Positions 5,612 to 44,650 of a stretch of DNA of 64,000 nucleotides are shown one piece after another. Made by a program: the position numbers and the translations under genes. The stretch is taken from positions 1,638,371 to 1,702,370 of the forward strand of contig NC_023135.1 in the NCBI RefSeq assembly GCF_000511355.1. The letters run 5' to 3'. The number at the start of each line of letters is the position of its first letter. The stretch's first letter is position 1. Source of the stretch: Leisingera methylohalidivorans DSM 14336. Its GTDB lineage: Bacteria > Pseudomonadota > Alphaproteobacteria > Rhodobacterales > Rhodobacteraceae. The notes beneath the pieces were generated by a model that worked only from the letters and a program-made list of their open reading frames with translations, did not search any database and had not been told where the DNA came from.

Positions 5612-5628
5612 TCCACCCAACAAAAGGA

Positions 5629-5655
5629 ACGGGGCGCATTTGGCGCCCCGTTTTG
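5629..5655 (+). terminator. Hairpin terminator or attenuator between TAXI binding protein and permease
   Basis: Perfect 9-bp stem ACGGGGCGC/GCGCCCCGT with a five-base loop, followed by TTTT. It lies 18 bp after the binding-protein stop and before the permease, consistent with partial termination that keeps binding protein in excess. Confidence 0.75.
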
Positions 5656-5723
5656 CCTGAGGCCGCTGCCCAGGCTTGAAAAATTCAGGCCCCGGGAAAC
5701 GGCGGCCTTAGGGGAGATTATCC

Positions 5724-20851: not shown

Positions 20852-21520
20852 TGTACTGAAGTGTCGGGAAACGCTTCGGTTTACATGGCGGCCAACAGGC
20901 CAGGCGAGGCCGGAGGTTGGAAATGCCATCAGAGATCTGTTCAGCCATCCCCGTGCCGCTGCCAATCTTGCGCTGACGTATATATTCCAGGCTAGGGCGT
21001 CGAATTTTTCTGCCTGACGTTTGACGCGATGCAGCGGGCAGTCCCTTTCATACAAATAGAACAGGGCATATGAGCTTCTGGCGGCGCGCTATGGGGACCC
21101 GGTATAGGCATTTTAAAGGGACCCGCCTGGCGTGCGTGCTGCTGGCCCAAGGCGCCGTGAAAACTGAAATCATCCCGCAAATGCGCGTGGGAACTTCCGT
21201 AGCCAACTGAATTAAATGACGATTTCGCCTCGGGAACCTCGGGGTACTTCGGAATTAAGACGGGAGCCACCGGGGAACACCGCAGGTGCCTTCCTTGCTG
21301 GGGAGTCATCGGAGAAGTTGCTGTGTCCTTGTCGGGCCAAGCCGCGGTCTTCACCATGGGCCCGGCCCGGCGAATAATAAGGTTCACTGCGTCGCTCTGG
21401 AGGTCGGGTGGGTACAGTGGGCGAGGCAGCAAGGCGGCACCCTATGCCGTCATCTCTGTCATCCACCCGGAAACACATCCTGGGATCAAGAGTGGGTTAT
21501 TCTTGTTTTCAAAGGTAAAA
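20852..21520. other. 670-bp region without a recognised gene, left flank of the island
   Basis: Frames on both strands are short and of low-quality composition. The stretch 21190-21500 is GC-rich with several short inverted repeats and could encode a structured RNA. I checked by eye for the conserved parts of tmRNA, RNase P RNA and SRP RNA and did not find them. Confidence 0.4.
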
Positions 21521-21582
21521 TGGCGGAGAGACAGGGATTCGAACCCTGGGAACCCGTGAAGGCTCAACGGTTTTCGAGACCG
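21521..21582 (-). repeat. attL: 62-bp duplicate of the 3' part of tRNA-Ser(CGA)
   Basis: Identical base for base to 44561-44622, the 3' 62 nt of the intact tRNA-Ser, from the anticodon arm through CCA. Identity stops abruptly on both sides. The 5' D arm and acceptor strand are absent, so this copy is not a working tRNA. Together the two copies bound a 23-kb insertion. Confidence 0.95.
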
Positions 21583-22767: not shown

Positions 22768-24072
22768 TCACTCTTGCATCAATGGAGAAGGAAGTTCTTC
22801 AGAAAACTCAGCAAGATCGCAATTCTTCAAAAAGAAGAAAAATGTCGAATCGATAGCAAAAAGACGGCGCTTGCTCTGATCATAGTCAATAAGCGGTGGA
22901 TTAATACCTTTCTTGTACTGTGTGCTACTCAAGTTATGAAGAAGATTGGTCATATCGCCGGGGCGAACATCATTCTTTCTATGATGCTCACTCTTGATTC
23001 GTTCAGTAATATCGGATCGATCTACGCCATGTTCAAACCCATCGTATCCAAGATCAAGTATTGCTCGCACAAGGTAATAGGGCAGATGAAGCGGCTGAAG
23101 AGCCTTTTCTTTTGAGTGGGTGATATTTCCGGATGCGATTAGCTCGAGAGCTTGCCGATGTGTGGCGCCATACTGATGAGATTTTTCTTGGATCGCCTTT
23201 TCTGCAAACTCTTCCCCGTACACTCCGAAAACGACATCACCACGCGATTTGAGGCCAGCTGTATCGCATGCTTCCCGCATGAGCTCTTGAAAAACGCCAA
23301 TGCTTCCGAAGGAGTTTTGAATGCATATCTCAACGATTTTCGGGTCTATCTCTGCGTTCAATTCTTCTGCGCCGAGTGCCGCAACTTGCCGAAAATCTTC
23401 CTCCTCCCATGGCTCGACCGGCACATCAATGACGCGATCTGTCAAATCCGAGCAATATATACGAAGCTTATCTTTTTGTCTCCAGACACCCAAGACAACA
23501 AAGAGTATCCCCATCTCCTGAAAGAGGCGAAGATCAAAGGAGATTTGTTTCTGAAGCAATTCATCTAAGTAATGAAAATTTTCCAGTATAATTCGCTGAT
23601 TAAATCCAACTTTTTTAAGAAGTTCCGACACGTCCTGAGGGACTGAAATATTGAAAGGGATAGTTTCGTATTGCGTTGCCTCCCGCTCAGAAGCCTCTCC
23701 CGAGCCGCCTCCTTTTAGTTCCGCTTCGCCGAATAGAGGAATCTTTGCTTTGAACTTCGCACCTGCGCTTCCACCAACCTTGCTCGCACTTTCTGATGTG
23801 GAACTTACCTCAATTAAAACTCCAGCCTGTCTAAGAATACTGGCGTAAACATCCTCGATCGTGGATTTCGGCGCAAGCCGAACTACAATGTTTTCCTGGT
23901 AAGAAAGATAACGCGACACAAGCGCAGTTTTCCCCTGCTTGGAGGCACCATAGACTACGACATGTTTGTCAGAACCTATTGCGTCATTAAACAGGCCGTC
24001 GATCTGGTCTCTCGGGATATATGATCTTACAGCTTTTGAGCTTACGCCAAAGACTTCATTGAGTTTCACCAT
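22768..24072 (-). CDS. P-loop ATPase (STAND/AAA-like) of unknown function
   Basis: A 434-residue protein. Walker A is YGASKQGKTALV (residues 41-52), and RIILENFHYLDEL (about 160-172) is a Walker-B-like strand with Glu in place of the usual Asp. A glycine/lysine-rich insertion (98-125) interrupts the ATPase core. Residues 320-434 look like a C-terminal winged-helix or helical domain. I chose the ATG at 24072 (MVKLNEVFGVSSK); the 20 codons upstream are hydrophobic noise. The gene is AT-richer than the core genome, a sign of transfer. ATPases of this design are common in anti-phage systems as sensors; that role here is inference. Confidence 0.75.
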   Translation of the reverse strand: MVKLNEVFGVSSKAVRSYIPRDQIDGLFNDAIGSDKHVVVYGASKQGKTALVSRYLSYQENIVVRLAPKSTIEDVYASILRQAGVLIEVSSTSESASKVGGSAGAKFKAKIPLFGEAELKGGGSGEASEREATQYETIPFNISVPQDVSELLKKVGFNQRIILENFHYLDELLQKQISFDLRLFQEMGILFVVLGVWRQKDKLRIYCSDLTDRVIDVPVEPWEEEDFRQVAALGAEELNAEIDPKIVEICIQNSFGSIGVFQELMREACDTAGLKSRGDVVFGVYGEEFAEKAIQEKSHQYGATHRQALELIASGNITHSKEKALQPLHLPYYLVRAILDLGYDGFEHGVDRSDITERIKSEHHRKNDVRPGDMTNLLHNLSSTQYKKGINPPLIDYDQSKRRLFAIDSTFFFFLKNCDLAEFSEELPSPLMQE

Positions 24073-24434
24073 TTTTGCTCCCAAAAGCCGCAAGAAAAAA
24101 ACAGAGATCACCGCAGGTAACCTTAGTTGCATAGCACTTGCAAGCAGGGAAGATACAGTTCTCCGCAGACGGATCGGGACTGGCTTGCGGCTTCGCGCCT
24201 TTGTGCGCTTACCTCCTTCAGCTCAACGAGCTATCTATCTCATTCCTTGCCGGTATTTTAGGCTGGCATGAGCGTCATACTGACCTTGGCATCACGCGCT
24301 GCTGCGGTAAAGCTTCCGACCTTCGCTGCTCAATGCTCAAATGGCCGCTCTGGGCCGGGAGCATCATGGCGCTCCAAAAGACCTTGAGGTCGTCAACAAG
24401 ACAGAAAGCTGTTCTCGGCTACCTTTACCTGATT
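24073..24434. other. 362-bp non-coding stretch upstream of the ATPase
   Basis: No gene found. It has a degenerate intergenic sequence with the GACCTTCGC core at 24318-24326, followed by AATGGCCGCTCTGGGCCGGG, a type often seen between genes in this family of bacteria. Confidence 0.4.
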
Positions 24435-25970
24435 TCACCGTCCGAACAGCTTCCCGGTAACCAAACGCCCTGTTTCCCAAAGCCCGGACGCGCCTCGCGA
24501 CATTTCCTGCGAGAAGGTAGCGCTGGCCTCGGCCCCTGTGCTGCGTCGGCGATTGCGCTGCGTCGCCAAGGCGTCCGATGCGCTGTGCGCGACGGTGGAG
24601 ATCAGTTGATCGAGGTTCCAGACCGCCCCTTCAGAGACGACAGGAATTGCCTCGCGGCAGGTCAGATCCGCACAGATGGCGGCGCTCGCTGCGGCAATGG
24701 TCGCCTGTGCCTCGCGCGGGAGGAGGTGTTCGGGAAAGGGCCAGTCCGGAAGCAGTTGGTCGACAGCGTTTGCCACGATGGTAACGGGCGGCATCCGCCG
24801 CAGGGGGCGGGCGGCGAAGGCGGCCTCGATCTGTCGGAGCAGCGCGACATCCGGGGCCCGTGCGGGGCGGTTGGCGCGGAGGATCCATAACACTTGGTCA
24901 CAGTCCAGTACCTGCGCGAGCAGGGTCTCGGCAACCTTTTCGCTGCCGTCGATGCCCTGTGTGTCGATCACTGAATAGGCAATCCCGTCGATGTCCAGCG
25001 CGTGGCGGGTCAGGTCGGGGGTTGTGGGTGCCATGTCCGTCTCGGCGACCTCACCTCCTGCCAGACGGTTAACGATTGTCGATTTTCCTGCCGACACCTG
25101 ACCAATCACAAGGAGACGTATCGGTTCGTTCGGCTGAGCGAGGATCTGTTTATCAAAGTCGGCGGAGCCGAGCTCAATATTCAAGAGTTCTTCATCCGTA
25201 AACCGCAGGTAGCCGGAATGCAGGTCCACTGCGGCGCGCGCGACCTCTTCCAGAATGATCTGCTGTACGAGGGCCAGGCTGAAATTTTTCATCTCGCCGC
25301 CATCTGCACTGCTGGTCACCGCCCCCTGGATTTCCTGCATGATGGCGGCCGGCGGGTTGGTTATCATGCGTTTCGCGCGCCATGCCCAGCCGACCACCGT
25401 GGCACCGCGCTGGACCCAAGCCTTGTTCTCCCAGATCCAGAGGATCGTCTTGAGGCTGATCCGGTCGGAAAATGGCACCATGTCATGCAGGTTGCGGCGG
25501 AGGCGGATCATAACGCGGTCGGCCAGCAGCAGCGCCTCGGGGATCGAAAAATCGAGGGCGCCTTTTTGACCTGCGGACAGCTGCTGCGCTGCTTTCTCGA
25601 CCAGATCGAAGGAAAGCTGTCGCATATCTCCCCAAGGGCGGGGTTCCCGGGCGATTTCTGTGCATAGGCTGTTGAACACCGCCAGTTCCCGCGCGGACCA
25701 TTCCGGGTTCGCCGTCACGATCGGGGCTGGGTCAGCATCGACGGGCGCGGCACTCTGCGTCTGTCGCAGGTGTTTCAGCAGCAGAAGGCTAAGCCGAAGC
25801 AGAAGGACCAGACCCAAGGTGATCGCGACAAAGGGCAGCAGCCAGTCATGCTCGGCCAACCAGAGGACACCGAGGATAACCAAAACCACCCAAGGCAAGG
25901 CATATAGGATGGCCGTCAGCAGTGCGGGACTGCGCGCGATACGTTTTAAGATCACCTTAACCGGCGGCAC
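24435..25970 (-). CDS. Membrane-anchored GTPase, third gene of a GTPase operon
   Basis: A 511-residue protein. Two N-terminal transmembrane helices (about 13-38 and 44-65) are followed by a helical region (90-285) and a GTPase domain. The domain has G1 GQVSAGKST (290-298), a G2 threonine near 317 and G3 DTQG (336-339). The G4 position reads NAVD rather than NKxD, so guanine specificity may be altered. Its start overlaps the upstream GTPase gene by 14 bp, so the two are co-translated. It resembles Era/dynamin-like 50S-binding GTPases in the core only. The partner gene also holds a GTPase, suggesting a heteromeric membrane machine. Confidence 0.8.
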   Translation of the reverse strand: MPPVKVILKRIARSPALLTAILYALPWVVLVILGVLWLAEHDWLLPFVAITLGLVLLLRLSLLLLKHLRQTQSAAPVDADPAPIVTANPEWSARELAVFNSLCTEIAREPRPWGDMRQLSFDLVEKAAQQLSAGQKGALDFSIPEALLLADRVMIRLRRNLHDMVPFSDRISLKTILWIWENKAWVQRGATVVGWAWRAKRMITNPPAAIMQEIQGAVTSSADGGEMKNFSLALVQQIILEEVARAAVDLHSGYLRFTDEELLNIELGSADFDKQILAQPNEPIRLLVIGQVSAGKSTIVNRLAGGEVAETDMAPTTPDLTRHALDIDGIAYSVIDTQGIDGSEKVAETLLAQVLDCDQVLWILRANRPARAPDVALLRQIEAAFAARPLRRMPPVTIVANAVDQLLPDWPFPEHLLPREAQATIAAASAAICADLTCREAIPVVSEGAVWNLDQLISTVAHSASDALATQRNRRRSTGAEASATFSQEMSRGASGLWETGRLVTGKLFGR

Positions 25971-27879
25971 TGTCGCGCTCCTTCACCTCGGCCCGCGAGA
26001 ATGCGGCAAGGTAGTGGTCCCGCAGCGACTGTTCATCGACCGTCCGGCCAGCCTTGGTGTGATACATCCAATACGCCGCAGCGCGCCCCACCGCATAGGT
26101 CGATGCAAAGCCATAGCCTGCGGTCAGGACCGGCACTGCTGTTTGACCGACGACGGGGATCAACCCAGCAAGGCTGCGGCCAAGGATGCCGACCAGCGTC
26201 CCACTCACCACGCCCGCCCCAAGCGCGGAGATAAAGGCGATCAAGCGGTCGCGGTCCCAGGGCAGACCGTAACTGTTCGCCAGCGCCGTGACCAAAGCGA
26301 GTTGCAAAGCGGGCGCGGTGGTTGCCCCAACCACAGGCACGGCCCCCGAGGCGGTCGCCATCCCCGCATATCGCAGAACGGTTCCGCGGCGCTCGAGAAA
26401 GGCTGCCTCCTCGGCGTCGCTGGCCTTTCGCCGGTCCATAAGCAGCACGACGGAGGGTAACGTATTGGCCAAGATCTGTTTCAGCTCGGACATATCGGCC
26501 TGTGATGGCACCGACATATCCAGTTCCAGCCAGGGCAGATCGCGCTTGGCGGCTTCCTCAAACTGCGACTGGTTCGCGGTTTGAACCCGTCGACGTTCAA
26601 GCGGATCGGGGACCTTATCTGCAGCGGTGTGGAGAACGACCACAGGCAGGTCGGGCTTTTTGCGCACCACCTGCGCCAAGGCCTCAGCGACGTTACCCTG
26701 AACCGGATCGTCGAGCCGCGTGAGCACGAGGACCATTTGCGAGGCGTCACCGTTGGAGGCAAGATCCGCATCCGGGCGATAGCCTGCTTCACCCAGCCCA
26801 CGGGTGTCGAGAAAGCGCAGGACCGGGTCCCCTTCGGGGTAATCATAGGCATCCGCCGTCCGAGTGCAGGAGGCAAAGCCATTTCCAACCTCTGCCGCGT
26901 CCTTGCCCGTTATCGCCTGCACGAGCGATGATTTACCGGCGCCGGTCTTCCCCAAAAGCCACAGCACCGGGATCGAGCGATCCACCGGGGCTGGACTGTC
27001 GGGCGCCTTCGTCTCGCTGTCCCAAAACGCGGCCACGCCCTCCGTCACGCTGGACCAGAGATAGGAGGGCGCGGCCGTCACATAGCCGAGCGCCGAGCGC
27101 GCCGTCTCGGACCAGCCGCCCGCGGCCTTTTGGAAAATCCGGTCTGTCCGGGCGATTGCAGCGAGTTCGGCATCGTGAAGCACGCCATCCGCCGCGGCGA
27201 TCTCGGTCAGAAAAGCCAGCAGCTCCGCCCTTAGGGTGTCGAAATTGCAGTCCGGGTTGTCGCGCTTATAGAGGGCGAGGGCCTCGGCGATCTCGTCTAC
27301 GCTGTGGCCTTCTGCGCTCTGTTCGATCACGGGCAAGGCTGCTGCGACATAGGCGGGATCAAGCCCCCATTCGGCGGTGAAATAATCTGCGATGGCTGCC
27401 CGCTCTGCATCGTCAACCTCTTCGGCTTCCCGTGCGACCCGGATCGCCAGCGAGCCCATCAGGTCAAACAGCGCCGCGCCGAGCACATCGACGGGCGTGT
27501 TGATGAAAGCCGGCACTTTCTTGACGCGCGCCTCCTCGTAGCCGCGGTAAAGGCGCAGAACACCGTAGCAGGCGGCGCCGCTGGCGACTGCGGCCCCGAC
27601 GACCCAACCGACGGGCGTCACCGCCGCTCCAACCCCGAGGGCCGCGAGCCAGCCGCCACCGAAAAACGTGCCCGCAACGGCGGAGGAGCTGGCCGCCAGC
27701 CCGCCCGCCGTCGCGGCTGTTCCGACTTGCCAGAGATCCCCGACCAGCCGCGCGGCCTGCAACGACGCAAAGGCCTCTTCGCCAATGTCGAGCTTCGCCT
27801 TGAACTTCATCGGTTCGGCGACCACCCGGCCGACGCCCTCGAACCTGCCGGTTTCGTCATAGTTTTCCATGATCGACAA
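25957..27879 (-). CDS. GTPase with TerB-like and DUF697-like membrane domains
   Basis: A 640-residue multidomain protein. Residues 40-115 hold two hydrophobic segments, 130-250 a TerB-like helical domain (LLAFLTEIAAADGVLHDAEL), and 300-480 a GTPase domain with G1 GKTGAGKSS (310-318) and G3 DTRG (358-361). Residues 505-620 form a DUF697-like membrane domain (SGAVPVVGATTAPALQLALV). The assigned TTG start directly follows the upstream stop and has AAGG 6-7 nt before it; an ATG three codons later (27870) is the alternative. It lies between a small membrane protein and a second GTPase. The layout recalls the E. coli YcjX-YcjF and YfjP neighbourhoods, whose roles are also poorly known. Confidence 0.8.
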   Translation of the reverse strand: MSIMENYDETGRFEGVGRVVAEPMKFKAKLDIGEEAFASLQAARLVGDLWQVGTAATAGGLAASSSAVAGTFFGGGWLAALGVGAAVTPVGWVVGAAVASGAACYGVLRLYRGYEEARVKKVPAFINTPVDVLGAALFDLMGSLAIRVAREAEEVDDAERAAIADYFTAEWGLDPAYVAAALPVIEQSAEGHSVDEIAEALALYKRDNPDCNFDTLRAELLAFLTEIAAADGVLHDAELAAIARTDRIFQKAAGGWSETARSALGYVTAAPSYLWSSVTEGVAAFWDSETKAPDSPAPVDRSIPVLWLLGKTGAGKSSLVQAITGKDAAEVGNGFASCTRTADAYDYPEGDPVLRFLDTRGLGEAGYRPDADLASNGDASQMVLVLTRLDDPVQGNVAEALAQVVRKKPDLPVVVLHTAADKVPDPLERRRVQTANQSQFEEAAKRDLPWLELDMSVPSQADMSELKQILANTLPSVVLLMDRRKASDAEEAAFLERRGTVLRYAGMATASGAVPVVGATTAPALQLALVTALANSYGLPWDRDRLIAFISALGAGVVSGTLVGILGRSLAGLIPVVGQTAVPVLTAGYGFASTYAVGRAAAYWMYHTKAGRTVDEQSLRDHYLAAFSRAEVKERDSAAG

Positions 27880-32222: not shown

Positions 32223-32597
32223 ATGAAAGATAAACAGACGGGGAAATTCGTGCGTACCGGGCGGATCAGCGAACGGCTCGCCGCGATGGAAGCACCAGAG
32301 AAGTTTGTAACTCAGGCCAGGGCGATTGAATCTGGGGAAACCGGTCTGAATGGATACCTCCATAAACCTGCTCTCAATGGAATGTTCAGGTTTATTGATT
32401 TGGCAGTCACCCAGGACCTTCCGTTGGATTTCCATACGAGCACGATCGTGGCATTTCTCGATGATCTTGATAAACGATCCACGGGCTCTGCGTATTGGTT
32501 GCGCTACGCAAATGCGATGCAGGAAGTGGCGCGCGAGATGGGTTACCCCTTCCAAGTCATCGATGGGTTCGAGGTGAGGTTGGGGCCGGTTTCTTAG
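32223..32597 (+). CDS. Truncated relative of the second recombinase-like protein
   Basis: A 124-residue protein starting MKDKQTGKFVRTGRISERLA. The segment MFRFIDLAVTQDLPLDFHTS parallels the N-terminal region of the 462-residue protein at 39763 (LDDFLAFIEDRQIASIWELS). The remaining ~340 residues of that family are absent. GGAAGGAG lies 14 nt upstream inside the end of the preceding gene. Gene order mirrors the intact pair 6.7 kb away. Confidence 0.55.
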   Translation: MKDKQTGKFVRTGRISERLAAMEAPEKFVTQARAIESGETGLNGYLHKPALNGMFRFIDLAVTQDLPLDFHTSTIVAFLDDLDKRSTGSAYWLRYANAMQEVAREMGYPFQVIDGFEVRLGPVS

Positions 32598-32760
32598 AAC
32601 ACCAGGAACCTCACATGCGATACCGGCCCAAACCGGCCGTTCCCGAAGCTATCAATCGCTGCAGCGTAGCTTTCACCAAACCGGCCATTCGCCGCGACCG
32701 CACATTGCATCGTGGTCATTGAGTTTCTTCGCGGTCACGGCGATCTCAGACTTCACGATG

Positions 32761-33084
32761 TCAGAAGGGCGGCTTCTTAGGCCAAGGGAAGCTCCAGACC
32801 TCACGAAGCGCGTGATCATATGGCTCGCCCCCCCTCGAACTGGCTACGTATCCGGTCCCAGGAACACCGGTGTGTTTTGCGTATACGAGTGCCTGCATCG
32901 GCGGATAGCCGTTCTCTCTGAACCAAGTCTGCATCACTCCAAGAAACCAGCGGGCGCTGCGATGGTGAAGTCCAAGCGGATCGGTGAGGTCCTTGTAAGT
33001 GATCCGCTGCCCCTTCCGAGCGCATCGGCGCAGTATCCTGTAAGCACGTCGGGCACGAGCAGTGTGGTCAATCATATTTGGCAT
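32761..33084 (-). CDS. Small protein with an MGMT/ATL-like winged-helix pattern
   Basis: A 107-residue protein. After a basic N-terminus, GQRITYKDLTDPLGLHHRSA resembles the helix-turn-helix part of alkyltransferase-like proteins, and GVPGTGYVASSRGGE resembles their later loop. The active-site PCHR is absent, so it would not be an alkyltransferase. The ATG at 33084 has AGGAG 7 nt upstream; a longer frame upstream is poor. Function unknown; it could bind DNA. It lies downstream of the reverse transcriptase on the same strand, 676 bp away. Confidence 0.6.
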   Translation of the reverse strand: MPNMIDHTARARRAYRILRRCARKGQRITYKDLTDPLGLHHRSARWFLGVMQTWFRENGYPPMQALVYAKHTGVPGTGYVASSRGGEPYDHALREVWSFPWPKKPPF

Positions 33085-33760
33085 GTGTCTTCTCCTGCGG
33101 CTCATGATGACGACGGAGATCTCGTGAGCCGCATGCCGAAGACCTCCTCCGCAAAAAGCGGGGGTTGGGTCAGCGGCCATCGGTTGATCCGACGGTTCGG
33201 CTCCTGAATGTACAGGCGGCTCTTTTTGCGATGCGGTATTTTGCATCGGCCCTGAAGGATAGAACATATGACGCGCCGACGAATTTGCAAGAACGGCAAG
33301 AACATTTCCAGGTAGAAACCTTGGGCCTACCCTCATCAAAAACTAAGGAAGTACGAGATATCCGGGGCATTTCGGCAGTAGACACGACGGCTATCGCCGA
33401 TGGATATGAACGGCAATCTCGGCCCGGACCTGCCGTTCATCGACCACTGCAATTGCTACGACGCAGTTCTTCAAAACGGAAGTTACTGCAACTTCTTCAT
33501 CCGGGTGGGGTTGAAATCATAAAAGCGCAGGCACGAGGAAGCGAACTTTTGCATTCGGCGAAGCCCGATTGCCCTCATCCACCTCACTCTATCCGAGATG
33601 CTTCTCTGTGCCCTTTCGGTTGCCCGATCTGAACCAGTCCGCGAAATAGATCAGCCACACTCGATATGTCAAACCCGTTGAGCCTTTAGATCTTGATGGT
33701 ATCGTTGATAGTGTGGAACCCCTTCGGCGGATGAACATCAGCGGGCGTCTACCTTCTTTA
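33085..33760. other. 676-bp stretch without a supported gene, downstream of the reverse transcriptase
   Basis: Plus-strand frames here are unconvincing. One 40-codon frame at 33400-33522 encodes a cysteine-containing peptide but has no ribosome-binding site. No repeat or terminator is clear. A 3' RNA partner of the reverse transcriptase could lie here; nothing proves it. Confidence 0.4.
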
Positions 33761-35323
33761 TCAGACTGCAGCCGATATTAGTGCGTTAAGGTCCGAGTGT
33801 CCTTTCCAAGCAGCTTTCATGGTCCGCTTCTCCGCCACCGTAAAAAATTGAGAGCTGTAAAGAATCGCTGCTTGAACATACGGGGGCTCCTCATCATAAG
33901 CCGCTCGAACTTCGCGTCTCTCACGCGCAGTTCCAAACTTGCACGCAAAAATTGCTGAAATTGCCCGAGTATGGCTCCCGATGCTACGATTACGAAACCA
34001 AGACATTACATGGGCAACGGTTTCCGCAGAGACCGCATCACAAGTCATAACGCCAGCCGCATGATACATCCTTTGGTAGTCAAGGTAAAAGCCATTTGCA
34101 CATATCAAAGCTTCTATCCGCTCTCTAACGTCCTGATTTATCCTTGCAAAATGATTGAGGTAAGAAAAGTAATGCCTCGTAAGATGGGGGCGTCGCGCCA
34201 AGCCATCGAATGCCCGTTCAACACCATAGTCGTCGCCTGCAGCTCTCAGGTAGGGCAACGCGAATCTATCAATTTTTTCAGATATTTCTGGGGTGTCATC
34301 ATGATAGTCCAATAGGGCACGGACAGCGAGCAATTCTTCGTCCAAGCCATCCGATATTGCCTCCTCCACCTCATCAGAATTCACCCAGTCACCTTGGAAA
34401 CCATAGCCACCGTTTTCCACAAGGTCCCGAGCTGCCTCGACTTCATCTCTGGCCTCTTCGAAAAGTCGATCAACCTCCCGCTGTTCAAAGAGCAATTCAT
34501 TGGACGCGAGGATTCGCGTCTTTGTCGGATTCAAAGCCAAACCGACTTTTCGCATGCTCTCTATCATCTCTGCCAGAAATAGCTTCGCATCGAGCTCCGT
34601 CGAGAACCCAATATAAAAGTCATCAACATAACGCGCAGATGGATGATCAAACAGGCTGCAATTTGCGTCAAAATCTGTCAGGTAAAAATTCCCAAGAACA
34701 TCCGAAGGAAAAACGCCTTGAATGATCCCTTGGGAACTTTTCTGACGGAACGCCAGCAAAAGCTTTTCCATGAGCCGAACGCTTTCTGCGCGGCAGCCAC
34801 ATCCTTCCAAGGCATTAACAAGATTATGCTGAGGAAGAGTTTCGAAGTAATTGGCAACATCACACTGAAGAACAAAATCCATATCCCCGCAAATGGCTTC
34901 GACTCTTCGCTGAAACTTGTTCCAACCCTCGAAAGACGGGTCAAACAAGCGATCCGCTTCTGTGGATGGTATATGACTAAAGGAACGGGTTCTATCGAAC
35001 TGAGCTTCAATCTCGGGCAACATGTTTTCCAAAAGCCCTTGATAAAGCAACCGATCCTGAGGCAGAAGAATTGAGCCCGGGCGGGTCAATACGCCTTGCT
35101 TGGGGGCGCTGATTGTTACGGGTAACTGTGGCTCGTATGTTCCAGCCGCGAGCTTGGATTTCAGTTGATTGATAAGATCAGCAGACTTGTCCCGGAAAAC
35201 GATATCCAAGTGAGGCGCTAAAATGAAGTCGCTGCGTGAGTCCACTTCTATATTTCGCGCCGCTTTTTCCCAGTCGATCGTGTCGACAACTTCACTTGCA
35301 AGACCTGGCATTGGGACGCTCAT
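33761..35323 (-). CDS. Reverse transcriptase of the UG/Abi (defence-associated) type
   Basis: A 520-residue protein. RT motifs in order are RPGSILLPQDRLLYQG (81-96), the catalytic strand VLQCDVANYFETLP (151-164), QGVFPSDVLGNFYLTDFD (202-219), the active site RYVDDFYIGF (231-240) and GLALNPTKTR (261-270). Residues 300-520 are an alpha-helical C-terminal region with no known domain. It lacks the maturase and endonuclease parts of group II introns, retron features and the diversity-generating signature. The pattern fits the UG/Abi class, several of which are proven anti-phage DRTs. The start at 35323 is a choice; an in-frame TTG lies 18 codons upstream. An IS ends about 220 bp upstream. Exact UG group not assigned. 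Confidence 0.85.
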   Translation of the reverse strand: MSVPMPGLASEVVDTIDWEKAARNIEVDSRSDFILAPHLDIVFRDKSADLINQLKSKLAAGTYEPQLPVTISAPKQGVLTRPGSILLPQDRLLYQGLLENMLPEIEAQFDRTRSFSHIPSTEADRLFDPSFEGWNKFQRRVEAICGDMDFVLQCDVANYFETLPQHNLVNALEGCGCRAESVRLMEKLLLAFRQKSSQGIIQGVFPSDVLGNFYLTDFDANCSLFDHPSARYVDDFYIGFSTELDAKLFLAEMIESMRKVGLALNPTKTRILASNELLFEQREVDRLFEEARDEVEAARDLVENGGYGFQGDWVNSDEVEEAISDGLDEELLAVRALLDYHDDTPEISEKIDRFALPYLRAAGDDYGVERAFDGLARRPHLTRHYFSYLNHFARINQDVRERIEALICANGFYLDYQRMYHAAGVMTCDAVSAETVAHVMSWFRNRSIGSHTRAISAIFACKFGTARERREVRAAYDEEPPYVQAAILYSSQFFTVAEKRTMKAAWKGHSDLNALISAAV

Positions 35324-35542
35324 CTTAGAAACCACATTCGACCCAAGACTACGTTGGTTCAAGCGTGGATGCGACAATAAACTACAAGTGCATCATGGCC
35401 GGTGCTCGCTGCGAACTTCGTTTTTGCACTCTTCCGGCCTGAGATAGCTTTACCCTGGTGGTTGGAGGGCCCAAGGTCCGCTTTCCGAGATGAAGCCTGA
35501 CGATTGCGGGCACGCGGCGAACGGCAGCTGTCCGCCGATTCC

Positions 35543-37064
35543 GTGGAAAAACACCCGTTCGCGGGTGCAGAATTTCGTTGCTTGAGTTGGGCGCAAGCGC
35601 CTTTCCTATCAGGCTGTGCGCGTCTGCTGCGGTGCAGGAAAGATCTTGGCCAATTTGCGGATGTTTTGGGCGGTTGCGGCGAGGAGGAATTCGTCATTTG
35701 CACCGCATGGGCCACGTAATCGGAGCCTTCCGAGGCCGAGGATGCGCTTGAGGTGCGCGAAGAGCATCTCGACCTTCTTTCGGAGCTTCATGGAGATGTC
35801 GTATTGCTTGGTCTTTGCGATGTCTCGGGCGACCTGGCGGGCGTCTTCGTGTTCTTCGCGGGTGATTGATCTGGCATCTGCGTTCGGGCAGCATTTCGCC
35901 TTGGACGGGCAGGCCTGGCAGGTCAGTTTCAGGGCACGGTATTTGGTTCTGCCCTGTCCGGTCGGCCCCCGGTTCGGATCGGAATAGTTCCGCCGGAACT
36001 GCTTCAGCTCTTGGCCCTCGGGGCAGACGTATTGGTCGTTCTCGGCGTCCCACTCGAAGTCCGCCCGGCTCCAGGTGCCGTCGCTGCGGCCAGATTTGTC
36101 GAAGACGGGGATGTGCGGGTTAATCTTGCGTTCAACCAGCCAACCCAGCATCGGTCCGGTGCCATAGGCCGTGTCGGCAATCAGGCGTTCGGGATGCAGG
36201 TCGAACTTCTCTTTGACCCGCTTCAACATGGTCTTTGTTGACCCGACCTCTGCTTGCCGGATGGAGCGGGTGGGTTCCACATCCAAGATGACACCATGAT
36301 CTGTGTCGATGAGATAATTGTCGGAATAGCTGAAGAATGCAGGGCCTTTACGGGCCGCTGTCCATTGGCTGGCGGGATCAGAATGCGAGGTGAACTTGGG
36401 TTGCACCTCGCTGGCGGCGCCAAAAGCGGCCTCGTCCAGGGTGTCGAGATACTCGCGCACGGCGCGGGGCGCATCGGCGGGATCGATTTGTCCCGCATCC
36501 CATTCTTCCTTCGGCGTCGAGTTCTGCTTGTTGGCATCCGCCTCGATCAGGCTGGCATCGACGGCCATGCGCTGTCCGCTCACCAGACCTTCTTGGATAC
36601 ACCGGGCGACAGTCGTCTCGAACAGGTGCCGCAGCAGTTCGCTGTCACGGAAGCGCCCGTGCCGGTTCTTGGAGAAAGTCGAGTGATCCGGAACCCGGTC
36701 GCTCAGATCAAGCCGACAAAACCACCGATAGGCGAGGTTCAGATGCACCTCTTCGCAAAGCCGCCGTTCCGACCGGATGCCGAAGCAATAGCCGACCAGG
36801 AGCATGCGGATCAGCAACTCGGGATCGACGGAGGGGCGGCCCGTGTGGCTGTAGAAATCCGCCAGATAGGCGCGGACGTCAGTCAAATCGACGAAGCGGT
36901 CGATGGACCGAAGAAGGTGATCCTGAGGGACATGATCTTCCAGCGAGAACTCGTAGAACAGCGACGGCTGCGCCTCCTGCCTTGGTCCCATCATCGCAAA
37001 TCCTCCCGCCCAATGCGGGAATTGAATCAGTAGTTCAGGCCGCAATCAAGGAGGAGTTTTTCAA
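35543..37064 (-). mobile_element. IS1182-family insertion sequence
   Basis: A roughly 1.5-kb element carrying one transposase. Candidate imperfect terminal repeats are GTGGAAAAACACC (35543-35555) and, inverted, GTTGAAAAACTCC (37052-37064). No target-site duplication was obvious. It sits between the reverse transcriptase gene and the second recombination module, both orientations leaving the flanking genes intact. Confidence 0.75.
35609..36994 (-). CDS. IS1182-family transposase
   Basis: A 461-residue DDE transposase that appears intact. The N-terminal domain (SLEDHVPQDHLLRSIDRFVD, then HTGRPSVDPELLIRMLLVGY) and the catalytic region (GQRMAVDASLIEADANK, RLIADTAYGTGPMLGWL, KKVEMLFAHLKRILGLGRL) fit IS1182. 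A cysteine cluster CQACPSKAKCC lies late in the protein. The ATG at 36994 follows GGGAGG by 8 nt. It could be active. Confidence 0.9.
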   Translation of the reverse strand: MMGPRQEAQPSLFYEFSLEDHVPQDHLLRSIDRFVDLTDVRAYLADFYSHTGRPSVDPELLIRMLLVGYCFGIRSERRLCEEVHLNLAYRWFCRLDLSDRVPDHSTFSKNRHGRFRDSELLRHLFETTVARCIQEGLVSGQRMAVDASLIEADANKQNSTPKEEWDAGQIDPADAPRAVREYLDTLDEAAFGAASEVQPKFTSHSDPASQWTAARKGPAFFSYSDNYLIDTDHGVILDVEPTRSIRQAEVGSTKTMLKRVKEKFDLHPERLIADTAYGTGPMLGWLVERKINPHIPVFDKSGRSDGTWSRADFEWDAENDQYVCPEGQELKQFRRNYSDPNRGPTGQGRTKYRALKLTCQACPSKAKCCPNADARSITREEHEDARQVARDIAKTKQYDISMKLRKKVEMLFAHLKRILGLGRLRLRGPCGANDEFLLAATAQNIRKLAKIFPAPQQTRTA

Positions 37065-37168
37065 CAAAATACGCCCTTTCTTCCCAATCGGAGGCCATCG
37101 ACATATTCTAAATTCGATTTTTCGATCTCAAACCTAACCCCCATCTTCTCTTCAGAATTGGAGGGCAG

Positions 37169-37746: not shown

Positions 37747-37782
37747 ACCTCCTTTCCGCACCCGGAAAGGAGGTTTTCTTTT
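37747..37782 (+). terminator. Strong terminator after the double-HTH gene
   Basis: Perfect 12-bp stem ACCTCCTTTCCG/CGGAAAGGAGGT with a four-base loop and TTTCTTTTG tail. It separates the HTH gene from the recombinase operon. Confidence 0.92.
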
Positions 37783-37832
37783 GTCTGTCGGCAGGGTGCC
37801 GCCATGCCCATTTCATCAGCAACACTCCCGCG

Positions 37833-37987
37833 AAAATGACACCTGGGCAGGAAATTGGCCGAGCAACGGACAGATGACAGGCCGAGCGGACAAAATGACA
37901 AACGCCCCCGAAATTTCGGGAGCGGCAAGTGGAGGATTATTTGTCATTTTCGGCTTCGGTTTGGGGAATAATGGCCAATTTGTCATT
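37833..37987. promoter_or_regulatory. Symmetric operator-like or recombination site upstream of the recombinase pair
   Basis: Two copies of AAAATGACA (37833-37841 and, as AAAATGACAAA, 37892-37902) face two inverted copies, TTTGTCATTTT (37940-37950) and TTTGTCATT (37979-37987). Between the inner pair lies a perfect palindrome CCCGAAATTTCGGG (37907-37920). The block ends 24 bp before the recombinase start. Confidence 0.65.
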
Positions 37988-38011
37988 CAGCGGACAAGAA
38001 AAGAGGCCTTC

Positions 38012-39766
38012 ATGAGCTTTTTCAAACCCATCGCGCCGATGACATTCCAGAACGTGCTGGACTGGACCATCGCGCAAGACAAGAGAGACTACGTCTCCCC
38101 GGTCAAGCGGTGCAGTGAGTTGTACAAGAACCGGCACCTGCAAGACATTCCGGCCGATCTGGATGAATTTAAGCGACGCTTTCCGCTGGGCGGTTTCGAT
38201 CCCCGGCATTTCAAGACCGAGAATGCCTACAAGGCCTGGCGCCGGAAAGTGTCCGCCGCCATCAAAGGGGCCACCGGGCAGCTGCAGGAAGAACAAGAGC
38301 GCCGGGCGCGGCAAGACGCCTGGGCGGAGCTGATCGATGCTCTGGAGCCGCTCACCGGTATGCCCGAAGAGGCAATGTATCCGCACCAAGTGCTGATCCC
38401 AATCCGGAAGCTGGCCGATCTTGCCCGGCAGCATGGCAAAGACCCCAGCCAAATTTCCCAAGAGTGGCTGTGCGGGCTGCGGCCACGTTTGGGATCAAAT
38501 GAATGGAAATCCCTGCAATCCGCTTTTCGGCAACTGAATCATTTCCGGTACCTGTCGTCGGTCCGGCCGCTGCTTCCGCCGGAGCCGTTTGCCGAACCCG
38601 CGGTTCTGCGTGCCAAACTCCTGCCGGGTGTTCCGGCTCACGTCGCAGCTGAGATCAATGACTGGGTGCTCAACGCGACACGTGGAGAATACGATCCGGT
38701 CGAGGATAGTTTCGAGGAAGGGACCTCTGAGAATGACAAGTCATCCAAGACCGCGGCGCTGCGGAAGTTTATCAGCACTTTGTCGGAATGCGCTGGTCTG
38801 GAGGCCAACCTTGGGCTGAGGGAACTTATTTCTCCTGATAATGCAGTGCAGGTTGTGCGCAGGTGGTCGTCCAACATGGATGGGGCCGGCAAGATCACCG
38901 CCGGGACGGCACATGGCTACCTTAAGTCCATCTACGTCGTGATGGCGCGCAACGGCCTGCCCCCGGATGCGATGAAGGCGCAGCTGGCAAACAACCGGTT
39001 TTTGAAACAGGGCAAGAAGCAGGGAGGCGATATGTCACCCGGCGCGCGAACATTCTGTGAAACTCTGCTGGGATCGCAGAAACTGACCCTGACCTTCCTT
39101 TCCCTGCACGTGCAGCTGCGCAACCGGGCCCAAGAGCTCCTCAACAACTTCACGGGGGACGGGCGGGCAATGACCTCGAGAGAGATCGAGGAGGTGCGTT
39201 CCATCGGTTCGGTGGCGGCCGTCTGCGCTCTCGAAACCCGCGGCGCACCGATCCGCATCGAAAACGCGCTGGCGCTGGCAATCCGCGGCGATACCATCAC
39301 CTTCCATCTGCCGGGCAGGATGACGGATCACGCGACAATCACGCTGTCGCCGGAGCACACCAAGAACGACAGTGAGATTTGGGCGCCGATCGAACGCGGC
39401 AACCTGAACGGGCTCGAAGTGATCGAATGGTACATGGAAACGATCCGTCCGTTGTATCCGGGTGCGGATAGCAGCGATTTCCTGTTCCCGGGGATTATTG
39501 CGGAGGGCAATCTTCCCTACGAGACCTTTCTCGGCTGGTTCAAGCGCGAAACCCGTGCTGCCGGCCTGCCGATGACTCCGCATAATTTCCGCCACGGGTT
39601 GGCCTCGCTGCTGATCGAAGCCAACCCGGGAAGGTGGGACCTGCTCGAGCGCCTCCTCGATGATACAGTCGGCACTGCCAGGAAAAACTATGGCTGGGTC
39701 AACAAACGCGTGCAGCGCTCCGAGGTGCAGAAATACGTGCTCGATCTGACGAGGCTGAAGGCATGA
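38012..39766 (+). CDS. Large tyrosine recombinase/integrase
   Basis: A 584-residue site-specific recombinase, much longer than a usual integrase (350-420). The N-terminal ~330 residues are DNA-binding and helical. Catalytic residues are a box I arginine in ALETRGAPIRIENALAL, box II HNFRHGLAS (524-532) and the nucleophile Y560 in RKNYGWV. AAGAGG precedes the ATG at 38012; an upstream in-frame region overlaps the operator repeats and is not protein-like. It overlaps the next gene by 4 bp. A two-gene recombinase operon recalls islands with several co-transcribed recombinases (GInt, recombinase-in-trio), though the match is not certain. Confidence 0.85.
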   Translation: MSFFKPIAPMTFQNVLDWTIAQDKRDYVSPVKRCSELYKNRHLQDIPADLDEFKRRFPLGGFDPRHFKTENAYKAWRRKVSAAIKGATGQLQEEQERRARQDAWAELIDALEPLTGMPEEAMYPHQVLIPIRKLADLARQHGKDPSQISQEWLCGLRPRLGSNEWKSLQSAFRQLNHFRYLSSVRPLLPPEPFAEPAVLRAKLLPGVPAHVAAEINDWVLNATRGEYDPVEDSFEEGTSENDKSSKTAALRKFISTLSECAGLEANLGLRELISPDNAVQVVRRWSSNMDGAGKITAGTAHGYLKSIYVVMARNGLPPDAMKAQLANNRFLKQGKKQGGDMSPGARTFCETLLGSQKLTLTFLSLHVQLRNRAQELLNNFTGDGRAMTSREIEEVRSIGSVAAVCALETRGAPIRIENALALAIRGDTITFHLPGRMTDHATITLSPEHTKNDSEIWAPIERGNLNGLEVIEWYMETIRPLYPGADSSDFLFPGIIAEGNLPYETFLGWFKRETRAAGLPMTPHNFRHGLASLLIEANPGRWDLLERLLDDTVGTARKNYGWVNKRVQRSEVQKYVLDLTRLKA

Positions 39767-41151
39767 AGAAACCTGATCGCCGGACCGTTCCGGAAATCCT
39801 GCAGCACCCGCGATGGGATCCCTTGGCCGCAACGCTGAACATGAGGGCTGTGACCGCGCCGCAATTGCGTGTCCTCGATGATTTCCTCGCCTTCATTGAA
39901 GACAGGCAGATTGCTTCGATATGGGAACTTTCTGTTTCGGACTGCCTGTCATTCGATGCCGGGTATCGGTCCGCCAACCGCTTGCGCGCCTTGAAAAAGG
40001 CGATGCAGGCTGTCTTCCCGGCCCAGCCCGCCATCCTCGTCCTGACTGACGCCATCCGCCGGAAAGAGGCGCAAACCCGGAAACCGGCGGCCACGGCGCC
40101 AAGGCAGCGCACGCTCAGGGTATCGATTCCGGAGGAGGAATTGCCAGAGCATTGGAAAAGCGCGCTGGCAGACATGGCGGCAGGCTTTGATGGGTACGGT
40201 GTCATCGCACCGTCTCCCAAAATGATCCCGACATACAGAATGAAGCTGAGGCAGCTGGCCTGTTCGGCCAGAAAGGCCGGGGTGCCGGAGGAAATCTCGG
40301 TTGAGGCAGTGAAGGCCTTCACCCGCGACATGCGTGGACGCAGGCTGGCCGCCGCGACACAGCTGGCCTCTTTCTCTGCATTGAAGAAATGTGCCCGTTA
40401 TGTCGGCGCCGACCAGGAGGCGCAGGAGCTATTGTCGCAGCTCCTGCGAAAGGCTGAGGATCAAGCCCGCAAAGCTCCAAAGAAGAAGTATGAAAAGCTG
40501 CAGAAAACCGGATACTCGCCGGTAGCGATCATCGGCCGCGCGGAGGACTTTCTGAAGGAGGCGGAAAGCCTGACATGCGCACGCTCGCGCCAGGCGTTGA
40601 GAAACACCGCCGCTGCTTTGGCGCTGTTTTCTGTACTGCCGGTCCGCTTGGCGGATACACGGCTTGTATTCGGGGAGCACCTGTCGTGGCGGCAAGGGCG
40701 ATATGAGCTGCACATCACCCTGTCCAAGGATGATGAGACTTATGACGCGGAAATTGATCCCCGGCTGAATGTATTCATTGATGCACTGATCCTCAGGGGG
40801 TGTGACGCGGCCTGGCTCGACCAGATGCGCAACGGCTGCCTGACGTCCAATCGGCCGCTCTTCGTTCGAAACGACGGGGTTGGTGTGGGCTACAACTATA
40901 TCTCTGATTGCTGGCGCAGTGTTTTCGGAACCGGCGAGCATATTGCCCGGACCATCCTGCACACCTTTCTGGGTGTGGAATTGGGGGCTGCCGGAACGGA
41001 CATGGCCCTGGCGGCCAACGGCCAGAAATCACCCCGGACAGCCGCGGATTACCAGGACCAAATGGTTGCAAAAGCACAGCGTCTGCAAGGACAGAAAGCC
41101 TTTGAGGATATGGCCGGCGGCGTAAGCTTGAAGCTCTTTGAATTCACCTGA
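39763..41151 (+). CDS. Tyrosine-recombinase-like partner protein with atypical active site
   Basis: A 462-residue protein translated from an ATGA overlap with the large recombinase. The central part has a box-I-like FSVLPVRLADTRLVFG. In place of HxxRH it reads HIARTILHTFLG, and a tyrosine follows in TAADYQDQMVAK. The histidine/arginine spacing is off, so it may be catalytically impaired and act as a structural partner of the recombinase. The N-terminal region is copied in the truncated gene at 32223. A long hairpin follows the stop. Confidence 0.75.
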   Translation: MKKPDRRTVPEILQHPRWDPLAATLNMRAVTAPQLRVLDDFLAFIEDRQIASIWELSVSDCLSFDAGYRSANRLRALKKAMQAVFPAQPAILVLTDAIRRKEAQTRKPAATAPRQRTLRVSIPEEELPEHWKSALADMAAGFDGYGVIAPSPKMIPTYRMKLRQLACSARKAGVPEEISVEAVKAFTRDMRGRRLAAATQLASFSALKKCARYVGADQEAQELLSQLLRKAEDQARKAPKKKYEKLQKTGYSPVAIIGRAEDFLKEAESLTCARSRQALRNTAAALALFSVLPVRLADTRLVFGEHLSWRQGRYELHITLSKDDETYDAEIDPRLNVFIDALILRGCDAAWLDQMRNGCLTSNRPLFVRNDGVGVGYNYISDCWRSVFGTGEHIARTILHTFLGVELGAAGTDMALAANGQKSPRTAADYQDQMVAKAQRLQGQKAFEDMAGGVSLKLFEFT

Positions 41152-42991: not shown

Positions 42992-43378
42992 ATGACCATT
43001 CAAACCAAACAAACCAAAATTTCGGTTTCTGAGGAAGCAGCCAATGTCCTCGAAACGATGAAACCGAGGCTCAGGTCGTCGGATGTCGCAAGGCTGAGTA
43101 GCAAGTCACGAAGGGCTATTACTCAGCACGCGGCAAACGAGGAGATCCCAGGTGCCGTCAAACTCGGCGGTGTCTGGACGTTCGATCACGACCTGGCCCT
43201 ACTTTGGATAAATGAGGGCAGCAAATGTCTAACAAAGAAGAAAAACCAAAAAACATCTTCAAGCCGAACAACAGCAAGTATTGGTGGCTCCGGGTCAAAA
43301 TCAACGGCGTCACCCACCGGGAAACGCTTCGTACAACTTCTAAAAGAGCAGCGGCAAGTAAAGCCAAACGCCGCATAG
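42992..43378 (+). CDS. Excisionase-like HTH protein
   Basis: A 128-residue protein. The core SSDVARLSSKSRRAITQHAA, then EEIPGAVKLGGVWTFDHDLA, is an AlpA/excisionase-type winged HTH with a helix reading a groove and a wing. The last ~50 residues are low-complexity Ser/Thr/Lys because they overlap the integrase gene in another frame. GGAGG precedes the ATG at 42992. Position just before int fits a recombination directionality factor. Confidence 0.75.
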   Translation: MTIQTKQTKISVSEEAANVLETMKPRLRSSDVARLSSKSRRAITQHAANEEIPGAVKLGGVWTFDHDLALLWINEGSKCLTKKKNQKTSSSRTTASIGGSGSKSTASPTGKRFVQLLKEQRQVKPNAA

Positions 43379-44322
43379 ACGAGCTGCGAGGGCAGGAAGA
43401 GGCCGGTGAACTGGACTGGCGGTTCGGCACTGGATTGGCCAAATTGTATGACGCGCTGGATAGCGATAGTAGTTCATGGAGCGTCGAAACGCGGAAACGG
43501 TATAAGTGCAGTCTGCGGCAGATCCTGCGCACCATAGACGAGTATTGCACCGACATCGGAAGCGATATTGAGGACCTGATGGCGGTAGAAGTCACGACGC
43601 CGGTTGTTTCCGAGTTTGTCGAACGCAGACGTGCGAGCGGGGTGACGGTCTCTACCATCAACAGGGACCTGACGGCATTCTCAAATCTCATGAAATCCAT
43701 CAAGAATGACGGATGGATTGAAACAAACCCGGTCCAAAACTACGAAAAGCAAGGCATGAAAGAGGTCTTGCCCGATATCGTTCTGCCTTCGGAAGCCAGC
43801 ATCCAAAAGCTGTCGGCGCGGGCTCCAGGCACTTTGAATTACTTTCCCAAATTTCTCGACGCTACTGGCGGCCGTGTTACTGAGATGGCGATGCTACCTT
43901 GGTCCGATATCTCGGGCCTCGAAAACCCTATTGAAGGGAACGTTCAGGCGATCCTGCGGAATACGAAAGGGAAGAAGGTTCGCGCGATTGAGTTGCGGCA
44001 ACAAGCAATCGACATCCTGTTGAAGATCCCTCGATCAAATGTCTCACCCTATATTTTCTGGAATTCTACCGAACACGGCTATTATAAGGACCCGTCGAAC
44101 CTCTTCTGGGAATACGGACAAGAAACAGGGTTCGATGCCCGGCTGCATGATCTTCGGCACAAGTTCGCCATTGAACGCCTCAAGGAGGGTTGGTCCATCT
44201 ATCGCGTTCAGAAATACATCGGCCATGGATCGGTGCTGACCACAGAGCGCTACTATCTCAGGTATCTTACCGCGGAACAGAAGGCTCGAGTGTCCGCAGA
44301 TGGCGATAACGGGTTTCGCTAA
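43225..44322 (+). CDS. int: Tyrosine site-specific integrase of the tRNA-Ser island
   Basis: A 365-residue phage-type integrase. The N-terminal arm-binding part (YWWLRVKINGVTHRETLRTT) precedes a core-binding SAM-like domain and a catalytic domain. Box I arginine is in DATGGRVTEMAML, box II is HDLRHKFAIERL (308 onward), then IGHGSVLTTERYYLRYL with the tyrosine nucleophile. It ends 238 bp from the intact tRNA-Ser, as expected for an integrase that uses the tRNA 3' end as attB. Its 5' end overlaps the excisionase gene by 154 bp. Confidence 0.93.
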   Translation: MSNKEEKPKNIFKPNNSKYWWLRVKINGVTHRETLRTTSKRAAASKAKRRIDELRGQEEAGELDWRFGTGLAKLYDALDSDSSSWSVETRKRYKCSLRQILRTIDEYCTDIGSDIEDLMAVEVTTPVVSEFVERRRASGVTVSTINRDLTAFSNLMKSIKNDGWIETNPVQNYEKQGMKEVLPDIVLPSEASIQKLSARAPGTLNYFPKFLDATGGRVTEMAMLPWSDISGLENPIEGNVQAILRNTKGKKVRAIELRQQAIDILLKIPRSNVSPYIFWNSTEHGYYKDPSNLFWEYGQETGFDARLHDLRHKFAIERLKEGWSIYRVQKYIGHGSVLTTERYYLRYLTAEQKARVSADGDNGFR

Positions 44323-44478: not shown

Positions 44479-44560
44479 TACTGGCCCGAAACACAGAAAA
44501 CAGATAAGGGTTTCCTTGGCCCTAAGTAGGGCGAATTTTGCAGCGATTTCAGGGGGATAT

Positions 44561-44650
44561 TGGCGGAGAGACAGGGATTCGAACCCTGGGAACCCGTGAA
44601 GGCTCAACGGTTTTCGAGACCGCCCCGTTCGACCACTCCGGCACCTCTCC
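44561..44650 (-). tRNA. tRNA-Ser(CGA), island attachment site (attR)
   Basis: A 90-nt class II tRNA on the minus strand. The acceptor stem GGAGAGG pairs with the 3' CTCTCC, the anticodon loop reads CTCGAAA giving CGA, a long variable arm is present, the T loop GTTCGAATCC is intact, and CCA is encoded. The 3' 62 nt (44561-44622) are repeated exactly at 21521-21582. Insertion restored the tRNA, so it should still work. Confidence 0.95.

What the first reader, a model, noticed from the sequence alone, without database searches (positions are those of the whole stretch)
33761..35323. Uncharacterised UG/Abi-type reverse transcriptase in a tRNA island
All core RT motifs including YVDD are intact in a 520-residue protein with a ~220-residue helical C-terminus of no known domain. 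It lacks intron-maturase, retron and diversity-generating features. Proteins of this general class include proven DRT anti-phage systems, some of which use a neighbouring non-coding RNA. The group it belongs to is not evident, and the flanks (35324-35542 and 33085-33760) are non-coding, so an RNA partner may be present.
Basis: partly seen in the sequence, partly recalled or inferred. Interest (0 to 1): 0.78.

Follow-up and report, generated by a model that had tools for sequence, protein, structure and literature searches.

The report
UG20 antiviral-type reverse transcriptase, single-gene system
This is an intact member of a catalogued but unstudied bacterial reverse-transcriptase family (UG20) carried on a mobile island; it looks like a one-protein phage-defence enzyme that makes DNA without an RNA partner, and it has an invariant tyrosine that may start the DNA chain.

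Summary
An intact RT with YVDD lies on the minus strand (33761-35323; likely start ATG 35311, 516 aa) inside a 23-kb island bounded by a duplicated tRNA-Ser end. The group is evident: PADLOC RT_UG20, 681 bits over the full length, next best 211. I found no functional study of UG20 in the library searched.

The suggested RNA partner is not supported. In 0 of 7 UG20 pairs with 75-80% RT DNA identity do flanks match beyond shuffles, whereas DRT2 loci at 78% share a 338-nt upstream block. No recurrent neighbour gene was found.

The predicted fold matches DRT6, DRT4, AbiK and AbiA over nearly the full length: RT core plus C-terminal alpha-solenoid. Best reading: a single-gene, Abi-like enzyme making untemplated, protein-primed DNA in anti-phage defence. 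Function is inferred, not shown.

New element: an invariant Y-G-F-x3-W motif (22 of 22) in a disordered acidic linker between the domains. DRT8-type RTs keep a linker tyrosine (9 of 9), and AbiA's likely priming tyrosine lies in the same linker. Tyr303 is the candidate primer.

The parts
33761..35311 (-). UG20 reverse transcriptase gene, 516 aa, from the conserved M-P-G-L start (ATG 35323 is also possible)
34442..35311 (-). RT domain (fingers and palm), about residues 1-290
34619..34630 (-). catalytic YVDD, residues 228-231, invariant in 22 of 22 aligned UG20 proteins
34322..34486 (-). acidic linker, residues 276-330 (47-64 aa and 28-58% Asp/Glu across 22 proteins); residues 301-314 have pLDDT under 50
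34385..34405 (-). invariant Y303-G304-F305-x3-W309 motif; Tyr303 (34403-34405) is the candidate DNA-priming residue (inference)
   Evidence: AbiA comparison
33764..34339 (-). C-terminal alpha-solenoid, residues 325-516
   Evidence: weak alphaRep match
35312..35540 (-). upstream flank, about 230 nt up to the probable IS end; no conserved RNA element detected
33085..33760 (-). downstream flank; no similarity to the flanks of relatives detected
35609..37045 (-). IS transposase (DUF772, DDE); probable imperfect terminal repeats at 35538-35555 and 37053-37070
21507..21582 (.). left att-like repeat (tRNA-Ser end)
44547..44622 (.). right att-like repeat, overlapping tRNA-Ser(CGA) 44561-44650
43225..44322 (+). 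island integrase (Phage_integrase)
22768..24132 (-). ATPase, PADLOC candidate defence family PDC-S59 (221 bits), same island

Best explanation
The gene encodes a UG20 reverse transcriptase that works as a single-gene, Abi-like (AbiA/AbiK/DRT4/DRT6-like) defence polymerase. Shown here: UG20 identity, intact catalytic motif, purifying selection, predicted RT-plus-alpha-solenoid fold, no conserved cis RNA or partner gene detected, mobile-island setting. Inferred: the enzyme polymerises dNTPs without a template, starting from one of its own hydroxyl residues, most likely the invariant Tyr303 of the disordered acidic linker, which may swing to the active site. The single-stranded product lies in the channel between RT core and solenoid; during phage infection its accumulation or stabilisation blocks the phage or kills the cell, as reported for DRT4. 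The acidic stretch around Tyr303 may also occupy the DNA channel and hold the enzyme off at rest.
Against: No activity, product or defence phenotype has been tested. The highest Z are group II RTs (24.4, residues 7-281). Foldseek TM-scores to DRT4, DRT6 and AbiK are moderate (0.59, 0.54, 0.47-0.51 by query length). The alphaRep match is weak: no single stretch passes the threshold. AbiK primes from a fingers-loop Tyr and DRT1 from a serine, so priming sites move between families. Other hydroxyl residues are equally invariant in UG20 (Ser80, Ser112, Ser203, Tyr381, Tyr384 among them). In the DRT8-type set a second Tyr, in the fingers, is present in all 8 rows that have letters there. An invariant linker Tyr could be a docking motif. 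The UG21 protein L096 has no linker Tyr by eye. An RNA acting in trans is not excluded. Not every UG20 locus lies in an evident defence island.
Confidence: 0.62

Rival explanations
1. A class 2-like two-part system: the RT reverse-transcribes a neighbouring non-coding RNA, as DRT2, DRT9 and DRT10 do.
For: L010/L011 share a 112-nt leader at 69% directly upstream; window and L008 share a short block there by eye (score ties the best shuffle, z 2.5). An IS lies about 230 bp upstream in the window, so a longer upstream RNA could have been lost from this copy. A few flank stretches of relatives fold better than shuffles: L012 0-120 nt upstream z -3.3 and downstream -2.7, -2.9, -2.3; L008 200-320 nt upstream z -3.1; L009 0-120 nt upstream z -2.1 (54 stretches in six loci).
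Against: 0 of 7 pairs with RT DNA identity 74.8-79.5% share a flank; L006/L019 (81%) share none within 2 kb by blastn, where hits were confined to the same or near-identical strains, L010/L011 and the L022/L023/L026 set. The L010/L011 leader is less conserved (69%) than the RT gene (86%). DRT2 control positive. No synonymous-site peak for window/L008 (z -1.3 to 1.1), no Rfam match near a gathering score; the window's own flanks give z -2.6 to 1.4, and the better-folding stretches do not recur at one place.
Confidence: 0.08
2. An Abi-like enzyme as above, but primed from another residue; the YGF-x3-W linker is a regulatory plug or a docking motif for a host or phage protein.
For: Short invariant motifs in disordered acidic segments often act as docking or DNA-mimic elements (general knowledge); AbiK and DRT1 prime elsewhere; other hydroxyl residues are as invariant.
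Against: DRT8-type RTs keep the linker Tyr but not the rest of YGF-x3-W, which fits a chemical role for the Tyr; AbiA precedent.
Confidence: 0.22
3. A domesticated RT with a housekeeping or repair role unrelated to phages.
For: Some UG20 genes seem to sit alone beside ordinary genes, for example L008 and L012 (product guesses from protein starts).
Against: Very patchy: 4 of 390 genomes of the order and 3 of 394 of the family, own genome included. Found on plasmids, in a locus with baseplate-like genes by eye (L002), near Gabija, methyltransferase, IetA or SIR2/DarT genes in some loci, and on a tRNA island here.
Confidence: 0.06

Closest known systems
RT_UG20 (PADLOC-DB 2.0.0, candidate DRT)
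   Same: Full-length match, 681 bits; roughly 510-550 aa RT plus helical C-terminus; one clade
   Different: Nothing separates it from the family; I found no function for the family in print
DRT8 (UG7; group name recalled)
   Same: Nearest profile that bears a DRT number (160 bits, after UG21 and UG22); conserved Tyr in the RT-solenoid linker
   Different: Separate clade; no YGF-x3-W; antiphage activity reported, no established mechanism (PMC13213688, passages)
DRT4 / DRT6 (UG15 / UG12; the pairing of names is recalled)
   Different: 11-15% identity; different UG groups; their class label was not checked
AbiA and AbiK
   Same: RT core plus alpha-solenoid; protein-primed untemplated synthesis; AbiA's favoured priming Tyr in the same linker
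   Different: AbiA has an added HEPN domain; AbiK primes from a fingers loop; 14-17% identity
DRT2 / DRT9 / DRT10 (class 2)
   Same: RT core with a YxDD-type motif
   Different: They carry a cis ncRNA; none detected here; DRT2 and DRT9 fold matches cover about half the protein

Membership tests
UG20 reverse transcriptases | Best and full-length match to the UG20 profile | tested here: met
   680.8 bits, 5-520 vs 1-511/511; next 210.5
UG20 reverse transcriptases | Monophyly with other UG20 proteins against DRT8 and UG21 | tested here: met
   22 rows one group, 100/99, against 8 DRT8-type rows; the single UG21 row also falls outside (97/98); the tool warns of long branches
UG/Abi class 1 (Abi-like) polymerases | RT core fused to an alphaRep/HEAT-like alpha-solenoid | tested here: met
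   Predicted structure with near-full-length matches to DRT6, DRT4, AbiK, AbiA, Abi-P2; alphaRep profile match weak
UG/Abi class 1 (Abi-like) polymerases | Template-independent, protein-primed DNA synthesis | not testable with these tools
   Needs biochemistry; candidate primer Tyr303 proposed from conservation
UG/Abi class 2 (ncRNA-templated) | Conserved cis-encoded non-coding RNA beside the RT | tested here: not met
   DRT2 positive control. A rapidly evolving or trans RNA would be missed
DRT8 | Best match to the Drt8 profile | tested here: not met
   160.3 bits vs 680.8 for UG20
Group II intron RT/maturase | Maturase domain; score above the family cut-off; intron RNA | tested here: not met
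   Only RVT_1 in Pfam; TIGR04416 80.4 vs cut-off 300; no intron match in Rfam over 32500-36000
Retron | Retron RT model and adjacent msr-msd RNA | tested here: not met
   NF038233 26.5 vs cut-off 235 (one retron model only listed); Rfam over 32500-36000 gave one chance miRNA match at E<=1; Rfam may lack retron RNAs
Anti-phage defence system | RT-dependent protection from phage | not testable with these tools
   Indirect only: island and neighbours

The most novel reading that the evidence does not exclude
UG20 and DRT8 form a mechanistic subclass of template-free defence polymerases in which a tyrosine in a disordered acidic linker between palm and solenoid primes DNA synthesis, the acidic segment acting as a built-in DNA mimic that keeps the channel closed until phage infection. 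The invariant Y-G-F-x3-W motif is the UG20 signature of that device.
Probability: 0.4. Interest if true: 0.6.

Novelty: new member of a known kind. Interest (0 to 1): 0.42.

Why it matters
UG20 is one of many catalogued DRT candidates for which I found no mechanism. The data here turn 'maybe an RNA partner' into a directly testable single-protein hypothesis with a named residue, and they suggest the same test for DRT8, whose antiphage activity is reported without a mechanism (PMC13213688, passages). If right, it would mark linker priming as a recurrent mode next to the AbiK fingers loop and the DRT1 serine.

Tried and rejected
RNA partner: tested by pairwise flank alignment against shuffles, 2-kb BLAST, Rfam, fold z-scores and synonymous-site conservation; rejected as unsupported. 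In one search the 11 pairs show scattered 30-codon bins with z up to 2.8, mostly the first 30 codons (L013/L014 2.8) and codons 300-330, the acidic linker (L022/L024 2.8, L023/L024 2.5, two pairs 2.0); window/L008 shows none. I built no covariance model, as there was no conserved flank to align. Partner protein: all-against-all BLAST of neighbouring ORFs found no family shared by more than two loci; rejected. Viral and phage carriage: no match, 13 loci matching parts of the RT core. DGR and CRISPR features were not searched for specifically. The gene upstream of RT in L006 looks CHAT-like to my eye only; PADLOC gave no match. The 2022 UG/Abi survey (Mestre et al., recalled) was not held, so the class 1 label rests on fold, not on that paper; the DRT4 paper was not held either. 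Several paper searches showed only part of their hits (30 of 3,623; 12 of 150).

Rows dropped before counts. Of 27 loci, 18 entered the 22-row alignment A2 (L009 as its copy L002); the other rows are window, L004, L006, L007. Left out: L016 (99.5% copy of L017), L026 (cut by the contig end), L028 (broken frame), L029-L034 (partial, broken or distant), L003 (copy of L015) and L005 (broken frame; used in the flank test). One search tested 12 loci in two groups, 60 comparisons; L010/L011 upstream alone beat the shuffles. In the DRT2 control I set the L080 start 117 nt inside the annotated one, to match its relatives, so part of its block overlaps the annotated CDS; L048 scores 381.7 against a Drt2 cut-off of 390. 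Of the nine DRT8-type rows, four came with the Drt8 profile and five only by tblastn at 27-28%; L108 was read from an internal ATG only (311 aa) and left out of the tree. One search, an earlier extraction of these rows, was faulty and replaced. Neighbour scan: 107 ORFs of 180 aa or more from 18 loci, longest first, some surely spurious (25 of 114 families shown, each hit by one ORF); of 10 neighbours picked by eye, 6 matched a PADLOC model at E<=1e-15. Repeats of earlier loci: L001, L078, L086, L091, L097 are the window; L079 and L098 repeat L027; L104 repeats L101; L106 repeats L099.

Full report
What is there. The ORF at 33761-35323 (minus) is intact and carries RYVDD. Close relatives begin with M-P-G-L, which puts the likely start at ATG 35311 (516 aa). 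Residue numbers below use that start. The closest relative found, L008 from a Pseudophaeobacter MAG, is 86% identical in protein, while only 43% of the codons at conserved residues are identical, so the gene is under purifying selection.

What it is. PADLOC gives RT_UG20 at 680.8 bits over the whole profile; the next models are UG21 (210.5), UG22 (168.2) and Drt8 (160.3). Five of five relatives tested are UG20 as well. In a tree of 31 rows the 22 UG20 proteins form one group against the eight DRT8-type rows; the single UG21 row falls outside on a long branch, and the tool warns of long branches. Pfam lists only RVT_1. None of the Drt models listed from NCBIfam reaches its cut-off.

Distribution. 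UG20 is rare: 4 of 390 genomes of the order at E<=1e-40, 3 of 394 of the family and 2 of 289 of the class at E<=1e-30, the window's own genome counted each time. One GTDB scan gave 27 loci, 24 of them alphaproteobacterial by record title. Three of 13 plasmid records have a match over at least 80% of the query, one in a Nitrospirota MAG. No full-length copy came from viral contigs or phages.

Setting. The gene lies in a 23-kb island between two copies of the tRNA-Ser(CGA) end (21507-21582 and 44547-44622), with an integrase beside the tRNA. The flank matches lie 117-285 bp apart in 12 of 20 congeners, and 0.8-12 kb apart in the other 8 (read off), so the site is a hotspot. The left-flank match in congeners stops near window position 20,850, some 650 bp before the left repeat, so a little more foreign DNA lies outside the repeat. 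The island also carries an ATPase matching PADLOC candidate PDC-S59 (221 bits) and two GTPases with weak LeoA/LeoBC similarity. An IS transposase gene lies at 35609-37045; its probable terminal repeat ends about 230 bp upstream of the RT start. Elsewhere UG20 genes lie within about 6 kb of GajA and GajB (L024), GajB (L022), a methyltransferase (L013) and IetA (L020), 6 of 10 neighbours picked by eye matching PADLOC, and of DarT, macro-domain and SIR2 genes (L005). No neighbour family is shared by more than two loci. This fits a stand-alone gene that often, not always, rides in defence islands.

No RNA partner found. Class 2 DRTs keep an RNA next to the RT (PMC12632851, passages). I compared 500 nt on each side between UG20 loci. 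In 7 pairs with RT DNA identity of 74.8-79.5% (window/L008; L005/L013, L005/L014, L005/L015, L013/L014, L013/L015, L014/L015) none beats 60 shuffles on either side; window/L008 upstream ties the best shuffle, z 2.5. Of 60 comparisons in that call only L010/L011 upstream (86% RT identity) beats them, a 112-nt leader at 69%. In the control, DRT2 loci L080/L081 with 77.7% RT DNA identity share a 338-nt upstream block (z 177), and L048/L080, with 52% protein identity, share 298 nt (z 45); the six upstream comparisons of these three with the two Calothrix DRT2 loci were negative, so the test loses power at about 35% protein identity. Window/L008 shows no synonymous-site peak. Rfam has nothing credible. 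The window's flanks fold like shuffles apart from one stretch at z -2.6 about 500 nt downstream; L012 and L008 have stretches at z -3.3 to -2.3 and -3.1, at different places. A trans-acting or very fast-evolving RNA is not excluded.

The linker. Between core and solenoid lies a segment of 47-64 residues, 28-58% acidic, variable in length and sequence, except for Y303-G304-F305-x3-W309, identical in 22 of 22. The model has pLDDT under 50 at residues 301-314, which hold the motif. In nine DRT8-type RTs one linker column is Tyr in all nine; one other Tyr column, in the fingers, is Tyr in the eight rows that have letters there. [quoted passage not shown] AbiK uses Tyr44 in a fingers loop and DRT1 uses Ser402 (PMC9508834, PMC13275509, passages). 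I therefore propose Tyr303 as the primer. This is inference: Ser80, Ser112, Ser203, Tyr381 and Tyr384 are just as invariant, and a docking or plug role is possible.

Mechanism and standing. Best reading: a single-gene defence polymerase that makes untemplated, protein-linked DNA. A 2026 commentary describes DRT4 as making random ssDNA whose 3' end a phage protein protects, so that toxic ssDNA accumulates (PMC13213688, passages). How UG20 would be triggered is unknown. My searches for UG20, UG21, UG22, UG19, UG7, DRT8, DRT11 and DRT12 in the open-access library showed no functional study of UG20 (one search listed 12 of 150 hits); subscription papers are mostly missing, and the 2022 UG/Abi survey was not held. 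The finding is a new member of a known kind with a sharp, testable prediction.

Noticed in passing
window 24435-27879 (-): Two adjacent GTPase genes, one with a TerB domain, weakly similar to LeoA/LeoBC, on the same island; possible dynamin-like system.
   Followed up: partly
window 22768-24132 (-): AAA-like ATPase matching PADLOC candidate defence family PDC-S59 (221 bits).
   Followed up: partly
window 37781-41151 (+): Second recombinase-like gene (weak Phage_integrase) followed by a 462-aa gene with no Pfam match, inside the island; perhaps a nested element.
   Followed up: no
window tRNA-Ser(CGA) site, 44561-44650: Insertion hotspot: 8 of 20 congeners have 0.8-12 kb between the flank matches there.
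   Followed up: partly
L034, about 5001-6154: Seemingly decayed UG20 copy (29% identity, no open frame of 300 aa there) beside a gltD-like gene (by eye) in Tardiphaga robiniae.
   Followed up: no
L005, 10001-11558: UG20 copy with a broken reading frame on a Rhizobium acidisoli plasmid beside DarT, macro-domain and SIR2 genes.
   Followed up: no
L002/L009: UG20 gene directly upstream of phage baseplate-like genes (by eye), so probably carried in a prophage-like region.
   Followed up: no
L104-L112 (DRT8-type): Linker tyrosine in 9 of 9 DRT8-type RTs, preceded by proline in 7 of 9.
   Followed up: partly
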